A DNA stretch of 64,000 bases from Povalibacter uvarum (GTDB lineage Bacteria; Pseudomonadota; Gammaproteobacteria; Steroidobacterales; Steroidobacteraceae), in the NCBI RefSeq assembly GCF_014202975.1, contig NZ_JACHHZ010000003.1:682001-746000 (forward strand). Reading direction: 5' to 3'. Shown here in pieces: positions 4,784 to 17,490 of this stretch. A program made the position numbers and the translations under genes. Within the stretch, counting starts at the first letter, position 1. Every line of letters starts with the position of its first letter. Under the pieces are notes generated by a model, which saw only the letters and a list, made by a program, of their open reading frames with translations, did no database searches and was not told the origin of the DNA.

Positions 4784-5668
4784 ATGTCCAGCACAGAATT
4801 CAAGTTGTCCCGCCGCGCGCTGGTCGCGGCAATCACGGCTGCGCTCGCAAGCCGAACTGCATTCGCAGCGAGCGAGAGCATCGCGGAGCAACTGACATCG
4901 ATACAGGGCGCTTCCGGAGGGCGCATCGGCGTGCATGCGTTCGACATGACGTCAGGACGATCGATCGGGCTCAACGATCACGACCGCTTTGCCATGTGCT
5001 CGACGTTCAAGCTCCTGCTCGCGGCGGCGATCCTCGATCGCGTCGACGCAGGGAAGATCGATCCGCGGCAGCGAGTGAAGTTCAGCTCGGCCGACATGCT
5101 TTCGCACGCGCCGCGAACTTCGGCGAAACTGGATCAGGGATTCATGACCGTCGTGGAGCTTTGCGCGGCGGCCGTCGAGATGAGCGACAACCCTGCCGCA
5201 AATCTGCTGCTGTCGCTGATCGATGGGCCAGCGGGACTCAGTCGCTACCTGCGTCGCATCGGGGACGAAGTGACAAGACTCGATCGCTTCGAGCTCGAGC
5301 TGAATTCCAATCTGCCGGGCGATCCGCGTGACACTACGACCCCGCACGCCATGAGCCACACCGCGGCGAAGATCGTGCTGGGAGATGTCCTCAGCCCTCC
5401 GTCCAGGCGGCTGTTGCGCGATTGGATGATCGCATCGCCCACGGGCGAGCGACGAATTCGCGCGGGACTGCCAAAGGGATGGAAGGCCGGTGACAAGACC
5501 GGCACCGGGACGAACGGTGCGGTCAACGACGTTGCCATTCTTTGGCCTCCGGACGGATCGCCCGTGGCCGTGGCCATATATATGAGTGACTCGAAGCGAC
5601 CGGCGCGCGACCTGGAGCCGTTCCACGCTCAGGTTGCTGCCCGGATTGCAGAGTCGATGACTGGCTGA
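4784..5668 (+). CDS. bla: Class A beta-lactamase, Tat-type signal
   Basis: The ATG at 4784 sits 5 nt after a near-perfect AGGAGGT (4772-4778). The 294-residue product has a signal with twin Arg (LSRRALVAAI) and likely cleavage after AFA (residue 28). All class A motifs are present: STFK with the nucleophile Ser73 (Ambler 70), SDN at 134-136 (Ambler 130-132), ELELN with Glu170 (Ambler 166) and KTG at 238-240 (Ambler 234-236). It should therefore be a catalytically competent serine hydrolase of penicillin/cephalosporin type in the periplasm. Cys72 occupies Ambler 69, but the Ambler 238 position is Gly, so the disulfide of known carbapenemases is not expected. No LysR-type regulator or mobile element is adjacent, which suggests a resident chromosomal gene. 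Confidence 0.93.
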   Translation: MSSTEFKLSRRALVAAITAALASRTAFAASESIAEQLTSIQGASGGRIGVHAFDMTSGRSIGLNDHDRFAMCSTFKLLLAAAILDRVDAGKIDPRQRVKFSSADMLSHAPRTSAKLDQGFMTVVELCAAAVEMSDNPAANLLLSLIDGPAGLSRYLRRIGDEVTRLDRFELELNSNLPGDPRDTTTPHAMSHTAAKIVLGDVLSPPSRRLLRDWMIASPTGERRIRAGLPKGWKAGDKTGTGTNGAVNDVAILWPPDGSPVAVAIYMSDSKRPARDLEPFHAQVAARIAESMTG

Positions 5669-7899: not shown

Positions 7900-8868
7900 T
7901 CAGGGGCTGCTCACGATGGGTACCAACAGTTCCGCGAGGTCGCCCTGACCTTCGATGCGCACACGCGCTGGATCCGGATGAACCCGCCGGATCCAGATCG
8001 CGGTCACGCGTGTGGGATACCGCCTCTGCATCGCGGCATAGATTTCCGGGTCCTGCTCGCCATCGTCGCCTGCGAGGACGAATGAGACGTGCGGCAACCG
8101 TTCGAATACTTCCACCAGCCGCCCCAGTTTGTAAGCGAACTGATTCGTCAGCGGCTCGCTGGACGCATCGTTGGTGACCCTCTTCGTTATCAGCACACCG
8201 CGCGGGAAGTTGTTGTGGTCGAGGAACGCCTGGATCGACGACTGAAGCTGGCGTGGAGACGCGGAAAGATAGAACAGCGGCGCCGACGTTGTGTCCGGAT
8301 TCGTTGCGGCGAGTTTCCCGTACGCAGCCGCGACATCGGGGACAGGTTTGCGCTGCCTGTAGTTGAGCAGCAGCGAGTTGGCGAGAAGCTGCGACTTGTC
8401 GTTCACCTCCGAGATCACGACCGTGTCGTCGAAGTCGGAGATGAGCCCGTGAACGTTATGTGCGGGCACGAGCAGCAACGATCCCTTGCCGCTGCCGTCG
8501 GTCGTCGCTGCGCTCATTTCATGCCAGCCTGGCATCGGCAGCGTCAGGTCCTCGATGAGGATGCGGAAATATCCTTCCTGATTGGTGGTCGTCCGCCACG
8601 CCTTCTCGCCGATCGTGACGGTGACAGGGACATCTTCCTGTTCATCATTCATGAGCGAACGCAGGTTTCGCGAGAGATTTCGGGCGCGACCGTCCTCGGC
8701 TGTGATTTCGCCCTGTTTCTCGCGATCGATGACGCGGCCCTCCACGACCGCGGCCGTGCCAGTACCGTAGGCGGGATAGAGAATGACGTCGAGCTCGGCG
8801 CGACAAGGTACGCCGATCGCCAGCAGGACAGGCGCGCAGACGAGGGCCATCGAGACAGTGGTTCGCAT
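7900..8868 (-). CDS. App1-type phosphatase (DUF2183), exported
   Basis: The 322-residue protein has a cleavable signal (MRTTVSMALVCAPVLLAIG, cleavage near CRA). After an N-terminal beta-rich region the DUF2183/App1 catalytic domain starts with ISDFDDTVV, the DxDxT motif of HAD-like phosphatases (nucleophile in DFDDT), and continues with LFYLSASPRQLQ (motif II Ser), a conserved Lys in GVLITKRV, and VLAGDDGEQDPEIY (motif III/IV Asp). The yeast relative App1 is a phosphatidate phosphatase; the bacterial substrate is unproven. Convergent with the nucleotidyltransferase and divergent from the lipase at 8957, with a REP-like palindrome between. Confidence 0.85.
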   Translation of the reverse strand: MRTTVSMALVCAPVLLAIGVPCRAELDVILYPAYGTGTAAVVEGRVIDREKQGEITAEDGRARNLSRNLRSLMNDEQEDVPVTVTIGEKAWRTTTNQEGYFRILIEDLTLPMPGWHEMSAATTDGSGKGSLLLVPAHNVHGLISDFDDTVVISEVNDKSQLLANSLLLNYRQRKPVPDVAAAYGKLAATNPDTTSAPLFYLSASPRQLQSSIQAFLDHNNFPRGVLITKRVTNDASSEPLTNQFAYKLGRLVEVFERLPHVSFVLAGDDGEQDPEIYAAMQRRYPTRVTAIWIRRVHPDPARVRIEGQGDLAELLVPIVSSP

Positions 8869-8907
8869 GGTTCCGCCGTTTTTATCGTGTGCGAAGGCGA
8901 TGCGCTA

Positions 8908-8930
8908 TCATCCCCGCGCGGGCGGGGATC
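8908..8930. repeat. REP-like half element (TCATCCCCGC...GCGGGGATC)
   Basis: A short GC-rich palindrome with stem CCCCGC/GCGGGG (8912-8927), preceded by TCAT and followed by TC. It resembles the TCATCCCCGCG...CGCGGGGATCCA units at 27709-27775 and 45192-45256. It lies between the divergent App1 and lipase genes, close to both starts. Confidence 0.55.
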
Positions 8931-8956
8931 TAACGATGGCATAACAGGGCCGCACT

Positions 8957-9742
8957 TTGCCAACTGTGACGTGGGACGATCTTCTGCGGCCGGGCAATGC
9001 CACGCGTTACTTTGCGCGCGACCCGCTGCCACAGTTCGATGTGAACAGCGCCGGTTACGCCTCGGCCAATGCCTGGTGGCTCGCAGAATTCAGCCGCATC
9101 GCATACCGCCATGATCGGCGAGAGTCTCTCGCCGCAAGCGGGTTCGAGGAGCTCGCGACGTTCGCATCGGACCTGACCGGCACGGGAGCGATGCTCGTGC
9201 AGTCCCGTTCAGTGTCACCCTTTGCGGTGCTGGCATTTCGCGGGACCGAGCAGAAGATCCAGGATTTCCTGCATGACGCGGATACGTGGCCGGTGCCGGC
9301 ATTCGGCGGGTCCGTACTCGTGCATCGCGGATTCAAGCGCGCGTTGAACAGTGTCTGGACTGCAATCGATGCAGAATTGAATCGCCTCTCGTGCCCTGTG
9401 TTCTACACGGGACACAGTCTCGGCGCGGCGCTCGCCACGCTGGCCGCCGCACGTCGGGCTCCGCGTGCCGTTTACGCGTTCGGCTCACCGCGGGTGGGTG
9501 ACGTTCGCTTCGTCGATCGGCTCCGCAATGTCCCGGTGTACCGCATCGTCCATGGTGCGGACATCGTCACCGCTGTCCCGCCCGAGGTCCTCGGCTTTCG
9601 TCATGCGGGAGAAGAGAAGCGGATCGGGAACGCGTCATCGCGCCCTGGTGTCTTCGACATGGCTGCTGTCTGGAATCAGCTTTCGGCACCGCCGCCGCCG
9701 CTGGCGGATCATGCGCCGATCAACTATGTCGATGGAGTGTGA
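8957..9742 (+). CDS. Lipase class 3 family protein
   Basis: The frame opens at TTG 8957 (or GTG 8966; an in-frame TAA at 8942 excludes earlier starts) and gives up to 261 residues. It has the class 3 lipase landmarks: FRGTEQKIQDFLHDAD near residue 95, the nucleophile elbow GHSLGAALATL, the catalytic-Asp region HGADIVTAVPP and a C-terminal His in DHAPINYVDG. The family hydrolyses acylglycerols or phospholipids. No signal peptide is seen, so it is cytoplasmic or released by another route. Its 3' end overlaps the convergent DUF418 gene by 19 bp. Confidence 0.87.
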   Translation: MPTVTWDDLLRPGNATRYFARDPLPQFDVNSAGYASANAWWLAEFSRIAYRHDRRESLAASGFEELATFASDLTGTGAMLVQSRSVSPFAVLAFRGTEQKIQDFLHDADTWPVPAFGGSVLVHRGFKRALNSVWTAIDAELNRLSCPVFYTGHSLGAALATLAAARRAPRAVYAFGSPRVGDVRFVDRLRNVPVYRIVHGADIVTAVPPEVLGFRHAGEEKRIGNASSRPGVFDMAAVWNQLSAPPPPLADHAPINYVDGV

Positions 9743-11070
9743 GCCTGCGTCGGGACGCTATGCGTTGCGATGCGCATCGGCTGGCGCTTCCCGTACGTCA
9801 GCGTGCGCCATAGCCATTCAGCGGGTCCGAACTGGAAGCGCTGCAGCCACCAGGGGCTCCATGCGAGCTGCATGATCCAGATGGCTGCGACGATGTAGTA
9901 GAGCTCGTGGCGTTCGAACCGCCCGAAGAGTCCCAGACCGGCGCCCGTGAACAGGAAGGAACAGATGATGCTCTGGCTGAGATAGTTCGTCAGGGCCATC
10001 TGTCCTACGTGGCCGAGCGTTCGCTTCGCCTTCATCGCGACCGGCGAAAGCCACAGCAATCCGATCAGGCCGACATGACCGAACGTCATCGGCACGCGTC
10101 CGAGATCGTACGTCACGTACGTGTCCATGATTGCTTCGACGGAGAAATCCGTCCCGAGCAGGCGGTTCATCTCCCACAGATTCACAGACAGCCCGATCGC
10201 ATAGCCGGCCAGCATCAGCGACAGATAGGTCCGCGAGGACGCCGCACCGGTGAGAATGCCGGTTCGCAGCAAGGCCATGCCGAGCAGCATCATTCCAAGG
10301 CATTCCGCGAAGCCGTATTGGATGAAGAACGTCGTTTCCCAGTAGAACGTGCGCTGCTTCAGGTAGCGAAACGCGCTGTGATAACTGCGGGCGATCTGCT
10401 CGACTGCGTATTCGAGCTTTTCCACCGCCGGCTTGTGGTCTTCGCGAACCTCGCGCAGCTCTGACAGCGCGCTTTCCTGCTGGCCCGTTAGAGGTTCGCC
10501 GGCCCTTTGCGCCATCTCCGCGGACTCCGCCCTCGTGACCACGCGCGTGTAGTCGGCGTGATCGAGCAGGTTCATGCCCGTCGGCACCATCAGCACGAGG
10601 AAGCCGAGGATCAGTAGTCGCGGCGTGGCGAGCTTGCGGAAGAGGTACAGAAAGAGTCCGACGACGCCGTAATAGAAGAGAATGTCGCCTTCCCAGAGCA
10701 GCAGGTAGGCGTTGAACAAGCCGAAGCCGATGAGGAGGATGGTGCGGCGGTAGTACAGTTTCGTGCGGCTCGGCGCGCCTTCGTCTGAAGGCGTCGTCTG
10801 CTGCAGGAACAACAGCGCGCCCGCGCCGAAGAGCAGCGTGAAGAGTCCACGCATCGTGCCTTCGAAGAACAGCGAGTTGATCTGCCACGTCAGGAGATTG
10901 ACTCCGTGGTGGCCTCCCCAGTTGGTCGGATCCTCGTAGGCCTCCGGCAGGCCGAAGCCGACGATGTTCATCAGAAGGATGCCGAGCACGGCAATGCCAC
11001 GGGTCGTATCCAGCATCCCGATGCGGTCGGCGCGGCGGACAGGCGTCGGATCGTCGCTCAAGTGAACCAC
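9724..11070 (-). CDS. DUF418 family integral membrane protein
   Basis: The 448-residue polytopic protein carries the DUF418 opening signature DTTRGIAVLGILLMNIV near residue 22 and about ten hydrophobic segments. A hydrophilic loop (about residues 175-235) is rich in Glu and Arg. The C-terminal DUF418 half includes TFGHVGLIGLLWL and GQMALTNYLSQSI. Members resemble acyltransferase-3-type membrane proteins, but no reaction is established. The start is GTG 11070 without a clear Shine-Dalgarno; ATG 11016, just before the signature, is a reasonable alternative. It is divergent from the RHS gene. Confidence 0.85.
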   Translation of the reverse strand: MVHLSDDPTPVRRADRIGMLDTTRGIAVLGILLMNIVGFGLPEAYEDPTNWGGHHGVNLLTWQINSLFFEGTMRGLFTLLFGAGALLFLQQTTPSDEGAPSRTKLYYRRTILLIGFGLFNAYLLLWEGDILFYYGVVGLFLYLFRKLATPRLLILGFLVLMVPTGMNLLDHADYTRVVTRAESAEMAQRAGEPLTGQQESALSELREVREDHKPAVEKLEYAVEQIARSYHSAFRYLKQRTFYWETTFFIQYGFAECLGMMLLGMALLRTGILTGAASSRTYLSLMLAGYAIGLSVNLWEMNRLLGTDFSVEAIMDTYVTYDLGRVPMTFGHVGLIGLLWLSPVAMKAKRTLGHVGQMALTNYLSQSIICSFLFTGAGLGLFGRFERHELYYIVAAIWIMQLAWSPWWLQRFQFGPAEWLWRTLTYGKRQPMRIATHSVPTQAHTPST

Positions 11071-11132
11071 CCGGTGGCCAGGTCAACTGCAGTGTGCATC
11101 GGTGCGGCGGGGCTGTCACTGGCCACATCGCC

Positions 11133-11156
11133 ATTTCTGTATGGACACACAGAAAT
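11133..11156. other. Inverted repeat in the divergent DUF418/RHS intergenic region
   Basis: ATTTCTGT (11133-11140) and ACAGAAAT (11149-11156) form a perfect 8-bp inverted repeat with an 8-nt spacer. It stands 62 bp before each annotated start (DUF418 GTG 11070, RHS ATG 11219) and is AT-rich compared with its surroundings. It could be a regulator operator or a small hairpin; no direct evidence decides. Confidence 0.4.
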
Positions 11157-11218
11157 TGGCGGCCCGGGGCTGCCGCGCGATCCGCACACTCAGCCGCATC
11201 CGGTAGAGGTGGGGCCGC

Positions 11219-14200
11219 ATGGAACGCGCGACCTGTTCATCACGATGTGTGTCGAAACTCGAGGCGGTGACGTCAGTGCGTCAGCGAGGTGCGGCGATCG
11301 TTGAGGCGGTCATCGCCCTGCCGATCCTGCTCGCGATCATTCTCGGCGCCATCCAGTTCGGACTGATCTACCAGGCAAAGGCGACGCTGAACTTCGCAGG
11401 GCTTCAGGCAGCCCGGGCCGGGGCGGTCAACAACGCCCGGCCAGAGGCGATTCGTGGAGGTCTCGCGCGGGGTCTTGCGCCATTGTATTCGCCGGACTCC
11501 TCGGTCGAGGGCGTCGCGCGAACGATCGCTCGAATCAACGCCGCGCTCGTCACCGATGCCCGTATCAGGATTCTCAATCCGACACGCGAAGCATTCGCCG
11601 ACTTCGGTGAGGACGTCGAAGGCGTTCGCGAAATCCCGAACGACCGACTGCATTCACGAAGTACCACCCTCGGTGCGCTGAGCGGCGTGAACATCCAGGA
11701 CGCAAACCTGCTGCGTGTCGAAGTCATGTACGGCTATGAACTGCAGGTGCCGCTGGTGAATGCGTTCATTGCCAGGTTCCTGCTGTCGACTGGTGAGCGC
11801 AGGGCGGCCTTCGATGCGTTCCAGCAGCAGTTGCTTCGTCGCGGGCGGCTTCCGATTGTGACTACGGCCACAGTGCGTATGCAGAGTCCGGCAAGGATGA
11901 GCGACGCGGTCGTATCGCGGGGCGAGCTTCCCGATCCACCACGCATTCGCGCGGACGCCCGGCCTCCGGATGATGGAGGAGGCGAGCGTAACGCTGGTGA
12001 ACAGCAACAAGGCGAAGAGAGCGCGCGTGAAGACGGCAGCAGTCTGTCCGACGGCTTCCTTGGCTTTGGCATCGGATCCGGCGACGGCAGCGGTGGTGGT
12101 GCATCACCAGGAGGTGGTGGCGATGGAAGTGGCGGTGGAGGAGGCGGCTCCAGCGGCGGAGGAGGTAACAGCGGAAATCCCGCGCAGTGTCCGGCCGATG
12201 GCGGGTCGCCTTCTCCACCTGGGCCAACGTCGTCGGGCGCCAGCCTGCCGGGCGTCGGGCTGCCATCGCTCAGCGTTGGCGACTCGATCCACGTGGTGAC
12301 AGGCAACAAGTATCACGAGGAGACCGATCTGCCGGCGGCGGACGGAGCCCTCGGGCTGATGTTCGCCCGGCACTACAACAGCGATGCCAGCAGACGAGTT
12401 GGGGTCATGGGTGCAGGTTGGCGCCACACATACGAGGCTTCAATCGTGCCGGGCGCGGACGGGAGCTCGCTGGATCTCTGGCAGGCGGATGGGCGGCGAC
12501 TCCGCTTCGTGCGCGCGACCGATTCAAGCCAATATCTGCCTCAGCGCGGCGGCGAAGGTGAGGTGCATATCGATGCGAGCGGCTACCGCTGGCTGTGGCC
12601 CAGCGGACGCCAGGTCGTGTTCGACACGCGCGGCAGGTTGACGGCGCTGCGGCAGGGGGCCGACCACGTCGTGATGAAGTACGACGACGCAGGGCAGTTG
12701 GACCGAATGCGGGATTCGACGGGCCGTGACCTTCGTATCGACTATTACCCGAACGGACGCGTCGCGCGAGTCGTGCTCGGTGGCGAGATCGCGTGGCACT
12801 ACGCATATGACCGCGTTGGCAATCTCGCGCAGGTCGTTTCTCCCGACGGACGTAGCAGGCGCTACGAATACACGGACGTGCGCCATCCAAATCACCTGAC
12901 GGCGATCACTGCAGGTGCGTCGAGACCCGCGGAGTACGGCGGGCGAGGCCGATTCCTCGAGATTGCCCGCTGGGAGTACGACGAGCGCGGTCGGGCCATC
13001 ATGTCGACACACCCCGGCGGCGCGGAGGAGGTGACGCTTGTCTACGATAAAAGCTTCACCGATGTGGCGGACGCCTTCGGGAAAGTGACGCGCCACAGCG
13101 TGACGAGTCGTGACGGCATAGCCTGGGTAACGGAGGTGCGTGGGCCGAGTTGCACGCCCTGCGACACGAGCGATGTGCGCTACGAGTTCAATCGCCGATA
13201 CCAGGTCACGTCGATGCTGCCGAAGGCGGGGCCGTCGTTTCGGCTTCACTACGATGATCGGCATCGCCTCGTCGGCGTCGAGCAGAACCCTGGCGATGCG
13301 GATCAGAAGCAGACGAGGTACGAGTACGAGGGAGACGCGCTGACGCCATCGAGGATCCGATTCCCAAGTGTGAACGCGGAAGGGTCGCATGAGATCACCT
13401 ATGCATACCGGAGCGATGGGCAGATCGATTCCATTCGCGAGACCGGGTACTCACCGACGTCGGCATCCGCGTTCAGCTCTATCGAACGCACAGTTCGATT
13501 CGCATACGACGCCGCTGGACGGTTGGTGGCGATCGACGGCCCACGGACGGATGTGGCGGACGTCATCCGCATCGGTTACGACGGACTCGGTCGCAGGACG
13601 CTGATCCGAACCCCCGAGGGAAATGAGCAGCGCATCGACGGGTTCTCTGCGATGGGACAGGCCCGGAGCATCCACAACACCGGGCTGCCGACCGTCAGTA
13701 TCGAGCACGACTCCGGCGGCCGAGCGATTGCAGTGACCGAACTGCGTGCGTCAGGGAAGCGGACGATTCGATATGCGTACGACGTGCTCGGACGACTGAC
13801 GGGCGTCACCGATGAGCACGGACGAACGCGAACCTTTGGCTATGACGCGGCCGGTCGGCCCGATCGCATCGGCGCCGATGACATGGATGCATCGATCAGG
13901 TTGCGATACGCGGCGGATGGAAAGGTCGCTGGCGCTGCGCTTCTGTCGAGAGGGGCGCCGATCCGCAACCATCGCTATGTCTACGATGACCGTCGGCGCC
14001 TCACGGAGATTCGCGATGGCCAGGGACCGCCGCTGCGGCAGCTGGAGTACGACGGCGAGGATACGTCTCCGGCACGGTTGATTGATCCGCTCGGGGAGGT
14101 CACCGAGCTCACCTACGATGCTTCGCATAGTCCTGATTCACTGACTGCTCCGGACGGGGGTGTAACGCGCTTCCAGCGCGACACACAGAGACGGCTCGTC

Positions 14201-16834
14201 GGCGTCACTGACCCGAACGACGCGAGAAGCCGCTATCGCTATGACGACTTCGGCAGGCGTGTGCTGGAAGAGACAGCGGATGGAGGTGCAGTGTGGAGTG
14301 CCTACGACGAAGCGCACAACATCGTGGAGCGCCGTCGAGCGAATGGTGAACGAACGCGATACGAGTACGACGCGGACAATCGACTGATCGCAGTCAAGAG
14401 CAGGGAAGGTGTCACACGCCTGACGTATCGAGGGCCACATCTCATCGCGATCGATGGGTATCGCGGCTCCGAGCGATTCAAGCGCGATCGCGATGGCCAG
14501 TTGACCGGGCACGCGCGAATCATCGGAGGCCGGGTGTTCCATGATGGCCGGCGCTTTGACGGGTCCGGGCGTCTGATCGAAAGAGCGATGCCGTCTGGCC
14601 TGCGCTTGAAGTACTCCTACAACGAGAAGGGAGGGCTGAGTGCAATCACGCTCGATCGATTGCTCGGCGACACACCGATAGTTTCGCAGTCGGGCCAGGG
14701 TGCCGGTGCGCAGAGCCGTGCCGTCGCCGCCATGCATCCCATGGGCCGGTTCGTGTATGGCAATGGCATCGAGCTGCACAATCTGCATGACCTGCGCACA
14801 GGAAAGCTGGCGAGCCGGGAGACTCGCGGCGTATCAAGCGCACAATATCGATACGACCAGGCAGGTCAGACCGTAGCGATCGCAACGAATGATGGTGAAC
14901 GACGGTATGAGTACGACACAGTCGGTCGCCTCAAGTCGGCGAAGCTGCCCGCGGGTGATTTCAGCTATCGCTACGACGCCAACGGGAATCGTCTGTCCAC
15001 CGCCGCTCTGCTTCGCGTGGATCGAACAGAGTCGAATGCATGGAAGCTGCGGTCTCAACCGGCGGATGGACGCGCGCCGACTGCAGGCAAACCGCTGGAG
15101 CGCGAGCTGCGCTACTCCGCCGGGTCCAATCGACTCAGGGAAGTAAAGCAAGAGCACACCAGCTCCGCGTACAGCTATGACGCGATGGGCAATCCCATCC
15201 GGGCGGGAAGCCGGAACTACGAGTACAACAGCGAAGGGCGACCCTACCAATTGTTCGTCGGCAATCGCCTCGTCGCGACCTACGCGTACAACCTTGCCGG
15301 CGAGCGGATCAGCAAGACCTTGCATGGAGGGTCAGGGCCGGGGACCACCTTCTATATATATGAGAGGCACCAGCTCATTGCCGAGGCGGATTCACAGGGG
15401 AGAATCGCCCGCGAGTACGTCTATCTCGGGCGCCACCCTGTCGCGCTGATCGAGCGCGGCCGGATTTTCTGGATTCACACAGATCACCTCGGCACTCCGA
15501 TTGCCATGACCGACGCCGATCGCCGTGTGGTATGGAAAGCCGACTACGAGCCGTTCGGAAAAGCGCACGTACTCGAAGATCCTGACGGCGACGGCGCCCT
15601 CGTGTCTCTCAATCTGCGATTCCCGGGCCAATACGCCGACGCGGAATCCGGCACGCACTACAACCTCACGCGTGACTACGATCCTTCAACCGGCCGCTAT
15701 CTCACAGTGGACCCGCTGGGGCTGTACGACGGGACCAATCCCTATGCGTACGTGCACGGCAGTCCCATCAGCAACACGGATCCCCTGGGGCTCTATCTCT
15801 TCGCATTCGACGGAACGTGGGTGAATCGCACGAACGGGACGCTGACGAACGTGGAGTTGTTCAGGAGGTACTACGACCCGACGATGGATGAGAGGAATTC
15901 GTTCTATAGGCGAGGGATTGGCACGCCGGCAGAGGGCGACACCGACTGGCGAGACTCAGTCGACAGGATACTGGGAGGGGCTACGGGACTAGGCGGACGG
16001 GAGATCATCGACGATGCACTGAACCTCCTCGATCGCCTGATTCGGGGTGGAGTACAGAACGTTCAGTTCGACGGTGTCATAGACATAGTGGGTTTCAGTC
16101 GCGGAGCAGCCATTGGTCGTGCGTTCGCCAACGAAATCTATTCCCGGATGGACGGCGGCCACTACCGCCACGCCTTGTCTCGCGACGGGTCCTGCAGATC
16201 ACTACGGATTCGATTCATGGGGCTGTTCGACACAGTGGCAGCCTTTGGCATCCCCACGAACGACACGAACATCGGCTACGACCTGACGATAGATGATCGA
16301 GTGGGCACGGTGGCTCATGCAATCGCCCTGAACGAGCATCGAGCGGCGTTCGATCTGATCTCGATTCAATACTCCGAGCACGCGGCGAACACGAGTCAGT
16401 ATCGTCAGGAGCGAGCGTTCATCGGTGCTCACTCAGACATAGGTGGAGGCTACGCAAACGGAGATCTCTCTGACCTTGCATTGCGTTGGATGCACACGCA
16501 AGCAATTGTTGCTGGTGTACGCATGACGCCGCTTCTCGATGAACACCTGGCAGTCAGTGCGCCACTGCTGCACGACGAAAGGAGATACCCGGCCCAGGAT
16601 CGGGAGATTTTCTATCCCAACGATCCGCTATGGGAGCGTGAAACCTGCCCACTCCCGGTGATCGCGTGTGCAGTCTGGGAGCCATCACCGACACAGCGCC
16701 AGGCAACCGCACCTCAGTTTCAGTTCCCTGAGCTCCGGGACATGATCAGAGAGAGTCGGCAGAGCGATGCCGTGCGCGGGGTCGTGGACATGGAGCGCTA
16801 CCGTGCTTGGTTGCGAAGTCGAGGTCAGCTGTGA
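11219..16834 (+). CDS. Chimeric TadE-RHS-DUF2235 (Tle1-like phospholipase) polymorphic toxin
   Basis: This 1871-residue protein has four parts. (1) Residues 24-60 are a TadE/pseudopilin-like segment: G24 followed by AAIVE with Glu at +5, then a hydrophobic helix (VIALPILLAIILGAIQFG) and QAARAGA; the TadE-like region runs to about 220. (2) A Gly/Ser/Asp-rich linker covers about 280-325. (3) An RHS cage (about 350-1525) opens with DSIHVVTGNKYHEETDLP, carries dozens of YDxxGR repeats and closes with VDPLGLYDGTNPYAYV...DPLGL; Asp1498 and Asp1521 match the self-cleavage core, predicting a cut after Leu1525. (4) The C-terminal 346 residues are a DUF2235/Tle1-like hydrolase: FDGTW, nucleophile elbow GFSRGA (Ser1627), LFDTVAAFG (Asp1671) and GAHSDIGGGY (His1738). 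The start could instead be GTG 11249 or 11267. It is probably a surface-exposed or secreted antibacterial lipase toxin; the delivery route is unknown. The next gene overlaps its stop codon. Confidence 0.9.
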   Translation: MERATCSSRCVSKLEAVTSVRQRGAAIVEAVIALPILLAIILGAIQFGLIYQAKATLNFAGLQAARAGAVNNARPEAIRGGLARGLAPLYSPDSSVEGVARTIARINAALVTDARIRILNPTREAFADFGEDVEGVREIPNDRLHSRSTTLGALSGVNIQDANLLRVEVMYGYELQVPLVNAFIARFLLSTGERRAAFDAFQQQLLRRGRLPIVTTATVRMQSPARMSDAVVSRGELPDPPRIRADARPPDDGGGERNAGEQQQGEESAREDGSSLSDGFLGFGIGSGDGSGGGASPGGGGDGSGGGGGGSSGGGGNSGNPAQCPADGGSPSPPGPTSSGASLPGVGLPSLSVGDSIHVVTGNKYHEETDLPAADGALGLMFARHYNSDASRRVGVMGAGWRHTYEASIVPGADGSSLDLWQADGRRLRFVRATDSSQYLPQRGGEGEVHIDASGYRWLWPSGRQVVFDTRGRLTALRQGADHVVMKYDDAGQLDRMRDSTGRDLRIDYYPNGRVARVVLGGEIAWHYAYDRVGNLAQVVSPDGRSRRYEYTDVRHPNHLTAITAGASRPAEYGGRGRFLEIARWEYDERGRAIMSTHPGGAEEVTLVYDKSFTDVADAFGKVTRHSVTSRDGIAWVTEVRGPSCTPCDTSDVRYEFNRRYQVTSMLPKAGPSFRLHYDDRHRLVGVEQNPGDADQKQTRYEYEGDALTPSRIRFPSVNAEGSHEITYAYRSDGQIDSIRETGYSPTSASAFSSIERTVRFAYDAAGRLVAIDGPRTDVADVIRIGYDGLGRRTLIRTPEGNEQRIDGFSAMGQARSIHNTGLPTVSIEHDSGGRAIAVTELRASGKRTIRYAYDVLGRLTGVTDEHGRTRTFGYDAAGRPDRIGADDMDASIRLRYAADGKVAGAALLSRGAPIRNHRYVYDDRRRLTEIRDGQGPPLRQLEYDGEDTSPARLIDPLGEVTELTYDASHSPDSLTAPDGGVTRFQRDTQRRLVGVTDPNDARSRYRYDDFGRRVLEETADGGAVWSAYDEAHNIVERRRANGERTRYEYDADNRLIAVKSREGVTRLTYRGPHLIAIDGYRGSERFKRDRDGQLTGHARIIGGRVFHDGRRFDGSGRLIERAMPSGLRLKYSYNEKGGLSAITLDRLLGDTPIVSQSGQGAGAQSRAVAAMHPMGRFVYGNGIELHNLHDLRTGKLASRETRGVSSAQYRYDQAGQTVAIATNDGERRYEYDTVGRLKSAKLPAGDFSYRYDANGNRLSTAALLRVDRTESNAWKLRSQPADGRAPTAGKPLERELRYSAGSNRLREVKQEHTSSAYSYDAMGNPIRAGSRNYEYNSEGRPYQLFVGNRLVATYAYNLAGERISKTLHGGSGPGTTFYIYERHQLIAEADSQGRIAREYVYLGRHPVALIERGRIFWIHTDHLGTPIAMTDADRRVVWKADYEPFGKAHVLEDPDGDGALVSLNLRFPGQYADAESGTHYNLTRDYDPSTGRYLTVDPLGLYDGTNPYAYVHGSPISNTDPLGLYLFAFDGTWVNRTNGTLTNVELFRRYYDPTMDERNSFYRRGIGTPAEGDTDWRDSVDRILGGATGLGGREIIDDALNLLDRLIRGGVQNVQFDGVIDIVGFSRGAAIGRAFANEIYSRMDGGHYRHALSRDGSCRSLRIRFMGLFDTVAAFGIPTNDTNIGYDLTIDDRVGTVAHAIALNEHRAAFDLISIQYSEHAANTSQYRQERAFIGAHSDIGGGYANGDLSDLALRWMHTQAIVAGVRMTPLLDEHLAVSAPLLHDERRYPAQDREIFYPNDPLWERETCPLPVIACAVWEPSPTQRQATAPQFQFPELRDMIRESRQSDAVRGVVDMERYRAWLRSRGQL

Positions 16835-17490
16835 AGGGCGTTGTTCGTCTTCTACCGCTGGCACTCTGTTCGTGCCTTCAAGCAGCGCCGAACCCAGGGG
16901 AGATACGAATAGTCAATCTGGGTTCCCGCTCTGTTTCGGCTTTCACGCTGGTCGGCTATCCGTTTCGGGACGTCGGCCTCGATCGACGCCCCGGCGAGGT
17001 ACTGACTCCCGCCTTCGGTACCGATTCCACGACCCTGGAGCTGTATTGGAAACTTGATGACGGTACGGTCCACGGCCAGGAGCTGGAACTCTCAGACCAC
17101 ATTCCTCCGGATTCCGACAATGACCCGATTGTCGTCGGCATTCATGACGACGGCCTGTCTGTCACATGGGCGAAGGTCGATCCGTTGTGGATCAAATACA
17201 GCCGAACCGGTAACCCAGGAATCTACCCACCTCCAACGGTGCCTTACTACCTGGGCTGCCATGGGCGATTGCTCGAACATCCTCTTGCCAAGGAAGCGTG
17301 GAGCGGCAATGCGCAGGAGTTGCTTGATCGCGATTCGTCCGCGTTGGTGGATGAACATCGCTGCTCGCTGGGCTGGTACATTCCGCGCTCCAACCGTACT
17401 CGGTCGGAGCCCGACGAACAAACAGCCCGCCGTCTGCGCGCCGAATGGCAGGCACAGATCGAGGCGTACAAGAAGCAGCAGCGGGAGTAG
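16831..17490 (+). CDS. Putative lipoprotein, candidate immunity partner of the RHS phospholipase
   Basis: GTG 16831 overlaps the RHS stop (GTGA) with GAGG at 16821-16824 as ribosome site, so the two genes are translationally coupled. The 219-residue product begins MKGVVRLLPLALCSCLQAA, a signal with a possible lipobox at LCSC. A beta-rich domain follows (EIRIVNLGSRSVSAFTLVGY, then YWKLDDGTVHGQELEL and GIHDDGLSVTW), recalling DUF3304-like lipoproteins that accompany Tle1-type effectors. The C-terminus is charged (RRLRAEWQAQIEAYKKQ). Immunity is inferred from position and export; no family assignment was confirmed. Confidence 0.65.
   Translation: MKGVVRLLPLALCSCLQAAPNPGEIRIVNLGSRSVSAFTLVGYPFRDVGLDRRPGEVLTPAFGTDSTTLELYWKLDDGTVHGQELELSDHIPPDSDNDPIVVGIHDDGLSVTWAKVDPLWIKYSRTGNPGIYPPPTVPYYLGCHGRLLEHPLAKEAWSGNAQELLDRDSSALVDEHRCSLGWYIPRSNRTRSEPDEQTARRLRAEWQAQIEAYKKQQRE

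What the first reader, a model, noticed from the sequence alone, without database searches (positions are those of the whole stretch)
11219..16834. TadE-pseudopilin / RHS / Tle1-like phospholipase chimera
One 1871-residue frame joins a TadE-like N-terminus with a prepilin-type site (G24 then AAIVE, Glu at +5), a Gly-rich linker, an RHS cage with the DPxGL self-cleavage core and a DUF2235 lipase with Ser1627, Asp1671 and His1738. Known RHS toxins are usually delivered by type VI (PAAR or VgrG), Tc-type or Sec routes. A pseudopilin-like anchor suggests membrane anchoring or export through Tad/type II pilus machinery. I do not recall such a combination being described; the domain calls are from motifs, and the delivery idea is inference.
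Basis: partly seen in the sequence, partly recalled or inferred. Interest (0 to 1): 0.82.

Follow-up and report, generated by a model that had tools for sequence, protein, structure and literature searches.

The report
Tad pilus minor pilin carrying toxin
A bacterium related to Steroidobacter carries a protein that joins a pilus-tip building block to a caged, lipid-cutting toxin, and relatives swap in other toxins, which suggests that some bacteria use thin Tad pili as toxin-tipped weapons.

Summary
The 1871-residue frame is real and intact. Pfam confirms all three parts: TadE (residues 24-66), RHS (354-1525) and a Tle1-like phospholipase. It is not a lone chimera.

The own genome has a tad pilus locus (secretin, ATPase, TadB, TadC, CpaB, pilins) without a tadE, and its only TadE match is this protein's N-terminus. 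That domain is 65-83% identical to five relatives. In Peristeroidobacter soli and three kin it sits inside the tad locus, fused to a HINT/Tox-REase-5 toxin.

Of 54 loci tabulated, 18 TadEs are toxin-linked: 6 fused to RHS, 6 fused to HINT, and 6 followed by a separate RHS gene (one of these by eye only). Cargoes include Tle1 (three), Tox-REase-5, a WHH nuclease and a DUF6765-like domain. The next gene down is a candidate secreted immunity protein.

Most likely this is a polymorphic toxin whose trafficking domain is a Tad tip minor pilin. Pilus assembly, delivery, toxicity and immunity are inferred. Nine searches of the held papers listed no description of such a fusion.

The parts
11219..16834 (+). 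Whole gene: TadE - Gly-rich linker - RHS cage - Tle1-like phospholipase, 1871 aa
11219..11290 (+). Prepilin-like leader, residues 1-24, ending in Gly24 before AAIVE
   Evidence: Read from the sequence; cleavage not tested
11285..11947 (+). TadE minor-pilin domain (Pfam match residues 24-66; conserved subfamily region about 23-243)
   Evidence: Pfam; 27 of 100 family genomes match, own included; alignments; model mean pLDDT 71.6 with helix 12-70 plus strands, no PDB match
11948..12277 (+). Gly/Ser-rich linker, residues 244-353, with a segment SLSDGFLGFGIGSG similar to the tails of three split or unresolved relatives (L055, L086, L085)
12278..15793 (+). RHS cage, residues 354-1525: DUF6531, YD repeats, RHS core with DPxGL at 1498 and 1521
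15794..16831 (+). Tle1-like phospholipase domain, residues 1526-1871, triad motifs with Ser1627, Asp1671, His1738
   Evidence: Pfam PF09994; alignments to 6sjl, 4o5p, 9j3f; positions
16807..17490 (+). Candidate immunity protein: overlaps the toxin stop, hydrophobic N-terminus like a Sec signal (by eye), no Pfam family, no convincing homologue in 150 family genomes
   Evidence: model uninformative, pLDDT 38

Best explanation
A polymorphic antibacterial toxin whose trafficking domain is a Tad (type IVc) pilus minor pilin. The TadE part inserts in the inner membrane with its C-terminus in the periplasm (inferred from the single strongly hydrophobic segment). A prepilin peptidase, here probably PilD, cuts after Gly24 (inferred), and the pilin joins the tip complex of the Tad pilus encoded elsewhere in the genome (inferred from gene content). 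The RHS shell keeps the phospholipase enclosed until the tip meets a neighbouring cell, and self-cleavage at the DPxGL core frees it (known for RHS proteins, recalled; not tested here). The phospholipase then attacks the target's membranes, while the downstream secreted-looking protein protects kin. Shown: architecture, intact triad motifs, TadE conservation, Tad gene content, exchange of cargo on the same TadE. Inferred: pilus incorporation, delivery, toxicity and immunity.
For: 1) All domains score above Pfam cut-offs and the triad motifs align with solved Tle1-type chains. 2) The own genome has one TadE match, this protein, and a tad locus with a Flp-like pilin, TadG-like protein, CpaB, secretin, FHA-TadA, TadB, TadC, DUF192 and a TPR lipoprotein, but no TadE match. 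3) In P. soli, P. agariperforans, S. agaridevorans and S. gossypii the related TadE lies between cpaC and tadA, fused to a toxin part (Pfam run on P. soli only: Tox-REase-5 over, PT-HINT 26.4 bits just under its 27.7 cut-off; the other three match its tail at 79-85%). 4) The tad loci fetched from G074, G153, G182, G044 and G003 also show no TadE; their TadE lies elsewhere and is toxin-linked in four of the five (in G044 no toxin is seen in the 1.8 kb left of the contig). 5) Fused TadE-RHS (G134) and TadE-HINT (G048, G141) genes lie inside tad loci. 6) Split TadE|RHS pairs lie in tad loci of G002, G027 and G790, and by eye G694; the split RHS proteins read have Sec-like N-termini (by eye), so the RHS part acts outside the cytoplasm, as the pilin topology predicts. 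7) Of 16 genomes, the 14 with TadE all have a TadA at 56% identity or more; G085 has neither, G028 only a 35% TadA and no TadE. 8) Tree: 17 of 18 toxin-linked TadEs fall on one side of a 98/93 branch, and HINT needs at least 3 changes. 9) Immunity-like neighbours: SUKH-1 near the G141 gene; two related lipoprotein-like genes (59% identical) behind the BWSM_72 gene.
Against: No experiment. The gene is not in the tad locus of its own genome. The TadE model (mean pLDDT 71.6) matched no pilin in the PDB. The canonical Flp family PF04964 does not match in G000; the Flp-like pilin was found by motif. In G003 the tadA match is in two pieces in different frames, so its Tad machine may be broken. An RHS cage of about 1170 residues may be too large for the Tad secretin (inference). 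The downstream protein has no detectable family, and in P. soli the gene after the toxin matches Tox-REase-5 itself (25.1 bits, cut-off 25) besides a sub-threshold Imm52 match, so it is not a clear immunity gene. The labels RHS-fused and RHS-split are each no more clustered on the tree than in many shuffles (108 and 89 of 500 as low). The genome also has a T6SS gene. 27 of the 54 TadE loci show no cargo.
Confidence: 0.7

Rival explanations
1. The TadE part is only a signal-anchor: it holds the RHS toxin in the inner membrane facing the periplasm, and release or export happens by another route (autocleavage and lysis, outer-membrane vesicles, type II secretion), without a pilus.
For: The topology alone would be served by any anchor; the gene is away from the tad locus here and in G074, G153 and G182; no PDB pilin match.
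Against: Conservation spans about 220 residues, far beyond an anchor (25 invariant columns in 15 rows); the tad loci of these genomes show no other TadE; fused and split forms lie inside tad loci in other genomes.
Confidence: 0.14
2. The RHS-Tle1 part is a type VI effector, as many known Rhs effectors of Gram-negative bacteria are, and the TadE part is incidental.
For: G000 has a T6SS sheath gene, VipB, as have G074 and G060; Tle1 domains are mostly known as T6SS effectors (recalled).
Against: No PAAR, VgrG or other T6SS loading domain in the Pfam scan; the gene is on contig C3 and VipB on C1; G096, G003, G002 and G027 have toxin-linked TadEs but no VipB match.
Confidence: 0.06
3. The RHS barrel is a tip adhesin or recognition head, with the C-terminal enzyme acting at the surface or on host lipids rather than being delivered into rival bacteria.
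For: Minor-pilin tips expose variable domains thought to recognise targets (PMC12075869, sections 16-17 read); a phospholipase could act outside.
Against: Cargoes on related TadEs include nuclease-type toxins (Tox-REase-5, WHH) with pretoxin HINT domains, and a SUKH-1 gene follows a HINT-fused one; these make most sense if delivered into cells.
Confidence: 0.07

Closest known systems
Myxococcus xanthus Kil (Tad-like) system with interchangeable minor-pilin Tips (PMC12075869: abstract, sections 16-17 and passages read; PMC8460266: passages read)
   Same: Tad pilus, minor-pilin tip with exchangeable exposed domains, contact-dependent killing
   Different: There the large TadG/KilN-type pilin carries the variable domain, and in the parts read no toxin sequence is named (Tip4 is said to associate with a toxin or to carry a toxic activity itself); here TadE itself is joined to recognisable polymorphic toxins. 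Sequence homology to Kil pilins was not tested
RHS polymorphic toxins, including T6SS Rhs effectors (solved relatives 7q97, 8h8a, 8cp6 by sequence)
   Same: DUF6531, YD-repeat cage, DPxGL core, variable C-terminal toxin, immunity candidate next door
   Different: A TadE minor pilin takes the place of PAAR, VgrG or Tc delivery parts
Tle1 (DUF2235) phospholipase effectors of T6SS (6sjl, 4o5p, 9j3f)
   Same: GFSRGA/GLFDTV/HSDxGGG motifs
   Different: Sits behind an RHS cage and a pilin
TadE minor pilins of tad loci (Pfam PF07811)
   Same: Prepilin-like site, N-terminal helix, same genome-wide Tad set
   Different: Stand-alone TadEs here are short (frames mostly 220-430 aa); this one is 1871 aa and encoded outside the tad locus

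Membership tests
TadE-like minor pilins (PF07811) | Profile match over cut-off | tested here: met
   38.9 bits against 22.9; 45.3 bits in the genome search
TadE-like minor pilins (PF07811) | Gly before, and Glu at +5 of, a hydrophobic N-terminal helix | tested here: met
   G24|AAIVE and hydrophobic segment; G24 and E29 invariant in 14 rows
TadE-like minor pilins (PF07811) | Encoded in, or co-occurring with, a tad locus | tested here: met
   Tad locus on another contig of the genome and no other TadE match; in-locus in relatives
TadE-like minor pilins (PF07811) | Pilin fold | tested here: inconclusive
   Model pLDDT 71.6, long helix plus strands; no PDB match with E<=0.001
TadE-like minor pilins (PF07811) | Cleavage by prepilin peptidase and incorporation in pili | not testable with these tools
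   One peptidase gene match, PF01478, in the genome
RHS polymorphic toxin | DUF6531/YD repeats and RHS-associated core with DPxGL | tested here: met
RHS polymorphic toxin | Variable C-terminal toxin on a conserved N-terminal part | tested here: met
   G074 copy at the same DUF418/RecQ site has another toxin tail, DUF6765-like
RHS polymorphic toxin | Cognate immunity gene next door | tested here: inconclusive
   Overlapping, secreted-looking gene without a family
Tle1 phospholipase | Catalytic domain and Ser-Asp-His motifs | tested here: met
T6SS Rhs effector | PAAR, VgrG or other T6SS loading domain, or T6SS neighbourhood | tested here: not met
   None in the Pfam scan; VipB on contig C1, this gene on C3
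Kil-type Tip complex | Homology to the Kil/Tip pilins of Myxococcus | not tested
   Only the paper text was read

The most novel reading that the evidence does not exclude
A new class of contact-dependent weapon in Gammaproteobacteria: a Tad pilus whose tip minor pilin is itself a swappable polymorphic toxin (RHS- or HINT-packaged phospholipase or nuclease), either fused to the pilin or, in split relatives, docked to a Gly/Cys-rich TadE tail. In this genome the pilus would have no other TadE, so its tip would be armed by default.
Probability: 0.6. Interest if true: 0.92.

Novelty: new variant of a known kind. Interest (0 to 1): 0.85.

Why it matters
RHS and HINT toxins are known with several delivery parts; a Tad minor pilin was not described as one in anything that nine searches of the held papers listed. 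The 2012 survey of polymorphic toxins (PMC3482391) holds none of the whole words Tad, TadE, Flp, pilus or pilin in the text held (word search only). [quoted passage not shown] A toxin covalently joined to a Tad minor pilin makes that question directly testable, for example in named strains such as Peristeroidobacter soli JW-3 and Steroidobacter agaridevorans SA29-B.

Tried and rejected
Foldseek of the TadE model against the PDB gave no useful match: 69 matches with E<=10, none with E<=0.001. The model of the downstream protein was worthless (pLDDT 38). The downstream protein is not similar to the genes behind two other Tle1 copies, L094 and L127, and in 150 family genomes it matched only itself and one weak place, E 0.0086. 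Megablast of the gene against plasmids gave nothing. Canonical Flp PF04964 had no match in 10 of 12 genomes, G000 among them; a diverged Flp-like pilin was then found by motif in the own tad locus and in three more stretches. A frame artefact was considered and rejected (codon pattern), and so was a one-off fusion. The L059 row of alignment A1 was taken in a wrong frame; A1 was not used further and A2, A3 and A4 do not hold that row. My simple ORF caller favours the longest frame, so some neighbours that it printed are antisense artefacts; counts rest on homology matches except where I say by eye.

Limits of the counts. Of 26 other genomes matched, flanks were fetched for 20; of 32, for 24 (20, 4 already held); of 13, for 7 including the own genome. 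Of 54 rows one (L143, under 140 residues) was dropped before the tree. The labels are mine. RHS was sought by tblastn in the flanks, a HINT query was used only (and P. soli's toxin gene), so a separate HINT gene behind an 'alone' TadE or 75 could have been missed. The RHS label of L199 (G694) is by eye from the first 103 residues before the contig ends; tblastn gave no RHS match there. The seven 'contig end' rows are on short contigs; two of them, L085 and L057, show 1.8-2 kb of other genes downstream. TadZ and TadV genes were not sought in the own genome beyond PF01478. The second structure job went to the downstream protein; the RHS-Tle1 part was not modelled.

Full report
WHAT IS THERE. The frame 11219-16834 (+) is intact, 1871 residues. 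Pfam finds TadE (24-66), DUF6531 (354-430), RHS repeats, the RHS core and the Tle1-like catalytic domain, each above its curated cut-off; NCBIfam adds the RHS-associated core at 1443-1525. The Tle1 motifs with Ser1627, Asp1671 and His1738 align with three solved Tle1-type chains. The start is plausible: an AGAGG stretch nine bases before the ATG (by eye), a conserved MER start in G074, and third-position-biased change through residues 25-243. The 24 leader codons are less conserved (11/7/13 changes).

WHERE IT SITS. The gene lies between a DUF418 gene (opposite strand) and a possible immunity gene that overlaps its stop (16807-17490), followed by an MCP gene and a frame that I read as RecQ (recalled, no call names it). 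In G074 the same site holds an RHS-fused TadE, 78% identical in the TadE part, about 50% in the cage, with an unrelated toxin tail (DUF6765-like over 36 residues): the classical polymorphic-toxin pattern. The downstream protein has a hydrophobic N-terminus like a signal peptide (by eye; no signal predictor was available) and no family.

THE MISSING tadE. In the own genome the TadE profile matches once, here. A tad locus on another contig, C2 about 719-729 kb, holds a Flp-like pilin with site G|QGMSE, a TadG-like protein (PF13400), CpaB/RcpC, the secretin, an FHA-TadA ATPase, TadB, TadC, DUF192 and a TPR lipoprotein, but no TadE match. The syntenic locus of Peristeroidobacter soli, P. agariperforans, Steroidobacter agaridevorans and S. 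gossypii has the related TadE between cpaC and tadA, fused to a toxin part. P. soli's was scanned (Tox-REase-5 above, PT-HINT just under its cut-off); the other three match its tail at 79-85%. The tad loci fetched from G074, G153, G182, G044 and G003 also show no TadE (G182's contig ends about 0.5 kb after the last tad gene), while their TadE lies elsewhere. Over 16 genomes, 14 have TadE and all 14 have a TadA at 56% identity or more to the query, which came from P. soli itself; G085 has neither, and G028 has only a 35% TadA match and no TadE. G003's tadA match is in two pieces in different frames. The own genome has one prepilin peptidase match, about 2 kb from a T2SSE-family ATPase gene that I take for PilB.

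A FAMILY OF TOXIN-LINKED TadEs. Relatives of the N-terminus were found in 27 of 100 family genomes (own included), on 13 named contigs, in 32 of 369 class genomes (own included) and in 13 of 398 phylum genomes, 12 of them of the same class, own included. I tabulated 54 loci. HINT-fused, 6: the four species above, G048, G141 (Pfam run on P. soli, G048 and G141). Split TadE|RHS, 6: G003, a Lysobacteraceae MAG, G002, G027, G790 and, by eye only, G694. Two Thiodiazotropha MAGs have a TadE with only a piece of DUF6531. Seven loci lie on contigs too short to tell. In 27 I saw no linked RHS or HINT, but a HINT query was used only. Cargoes: Tle1 in the window and BWSM_72 by Pfam and in G182 by tblastn (43% identity); Tox-REase-5; WHH nuclease; DUF6765 N-part. 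Several C-termini have no family.

NEIGHBOURING IMMUNITY-LIKE GENES. SUKH-1 follows the G141 gene. Behind the BWSM_72 gene stand two related lipoprotein-like genes, 59% identical. In P. soli the next gene matches Tox-REase-5 just over its cut-off and Imm52 below it, so it is ambiguous. Proteins behind the window, G182, G002 and G048 genes have no Pfam family.

SPLIT PAIRS. In split loci the RHS gene follows TadE and starts with what looks like a Sec signal (L086, L058, L059, L194, L199 at the printed start, L055 at an internal Met, by eye). The TadE there ends in a Gly-rich tail with Cys: 6 of 6 split TadEs have 56-99 residues after the domain, at least 15 Gly and 3-5 Cys, whereas 19 of 27 'alone' TadEs have 10 residues or fewer (eight are longer, and some of those have 3-5 Cys). 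The RHS partners begin with Cys-containing stretches, so a disulfide dock is possible (inference). The window's linker holds SLSDGFLGFGIGSG, close to SLADGFFGFGSGS of L086, so fused and split forms look like two states of one arrangement.

TREE. In a maximum-likelihood tree of 53 TadE domains, 17 of 18 toxin-linked rows lie on the 27-row side of a branch with 98/93 support; the other side has 26 rows: 22 alone, 3 contig-end, 1 split (L194). 'Alone' is clustered (10 changes against a shuffled mean of 18.1, 0 of 500 as low). HINT needs at least 3 changes on starred branches (0 of 500 shuffles as low as its 3). RHS-fused and RHS-split, taken singly, are not clustered beyond shuffles (108 and 89 of 500 as low). 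I read this as exchange of cargo on a conserved TadE.

RIVALS. A T6SS gene exists in the genome (VipB), but the protein has no T6SS loading domain, and G096, G003, G002 and G027, with toxin-linked TadEs, have no VipB match. A plain anchor is possible but does not explain the long conserved domain or the missing tadE. A recognition tip rather than a weapon is possible for RHS alone, but less so for HINT-nuclease cargoes and a SUKH-1 neighbour.

AGAINST. No experiment; a moderate model with no PDB match; canonical Flp absent from the own genome by profile; a cage of this size may not pass a Tad secretin (inference); the gene is unlinked to the tad locus in its own genome; no confirmed immunity gene.

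LITERATURE. Nine full-text searches of the held library (openly licensed PMC papers) listed no title or abstract start that describes a TadE-toxin fusion. I saw listings only, except PMC12075869 (outline and abstract, sections 16-17, passages) and PMC8460266 (passages). PMC12075869 proposes that TadEFG form tips with variable domains and says that Tip4 associates with a toxin or carries a toxic activity. PMC3482391 was only searched for words. Subscription papers and preprints were not covered.

Noticed in passing
window 4784-5668 (+): 294-aa frame that reads like a class A beta-lactamase (STFK and KTG motifs, recalled; no call names it).
   Followed up: no
window 7900-9742: Two further lipid-enzyme genes upstream: APP1-type phosphatidate phosphatase (-) and a class 3 lipase (+), near the phospholipase toxin; perhaps coincidence.
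   Followed up: no
L077:5769-18335 (own genome C1): A 4188-aa RHS-repeat protein with a DUF6531 match just under cut-off and no toxin or delivery domain in the Pfam scan.
   Followed up: partly
L078:9057-15148 (own genome C1, about 18 kb from the T6SS gene VipB): Neighbouring frames, one with fibronectin III and RGI-lyase-like matches and a weak RHS repeat, one with RHS repeats, possibly one broken or frameshifted gene.
   Followed up: no
L076:9470-11161 (-), own tad locus: The Tad ATPase carries an N-terminal FHA domain, which hints at phospho-regulated pilus assembly.
   Followed up: no
L092, L093 about 9959-11190 (Thiodiazotropha MAGs): TadE in a tad locus joined to, or followed by, only the first part of DUF6531: a decayed or minimal RHS stub.
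   Followed up: partly
L094:15544-16963: Behind TadE-RHS-Tle1: a lipoprotein-like gene, a short frame resembling the toxin tail (by eye), and a second lipoprotein-like gene (59% identical), as in toxin-immunity arrays.
   Followed up: partly
G447 contigs C19, C24, C49: TadE starts lie at the ends of two contigs and a TadE-RHS piece on a third, as if the N-terminal part occurs more than once in that genome.
   Followed up: no
L058:9797-10810 (-) and the matching part of L059 (C-termini of split RHS proteins): Shared unnamed C-terminal domain that by eye recalls NAD-glycohydrolase (TNT-like) toxins; Pfam gives no match over cut-off for the L058 piece.
   Followed up: partly
L177 (G003 tad locus): The tadA match is in two pieces in different frames; a real break or an assembly error in that MAG.
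   Followed up: no
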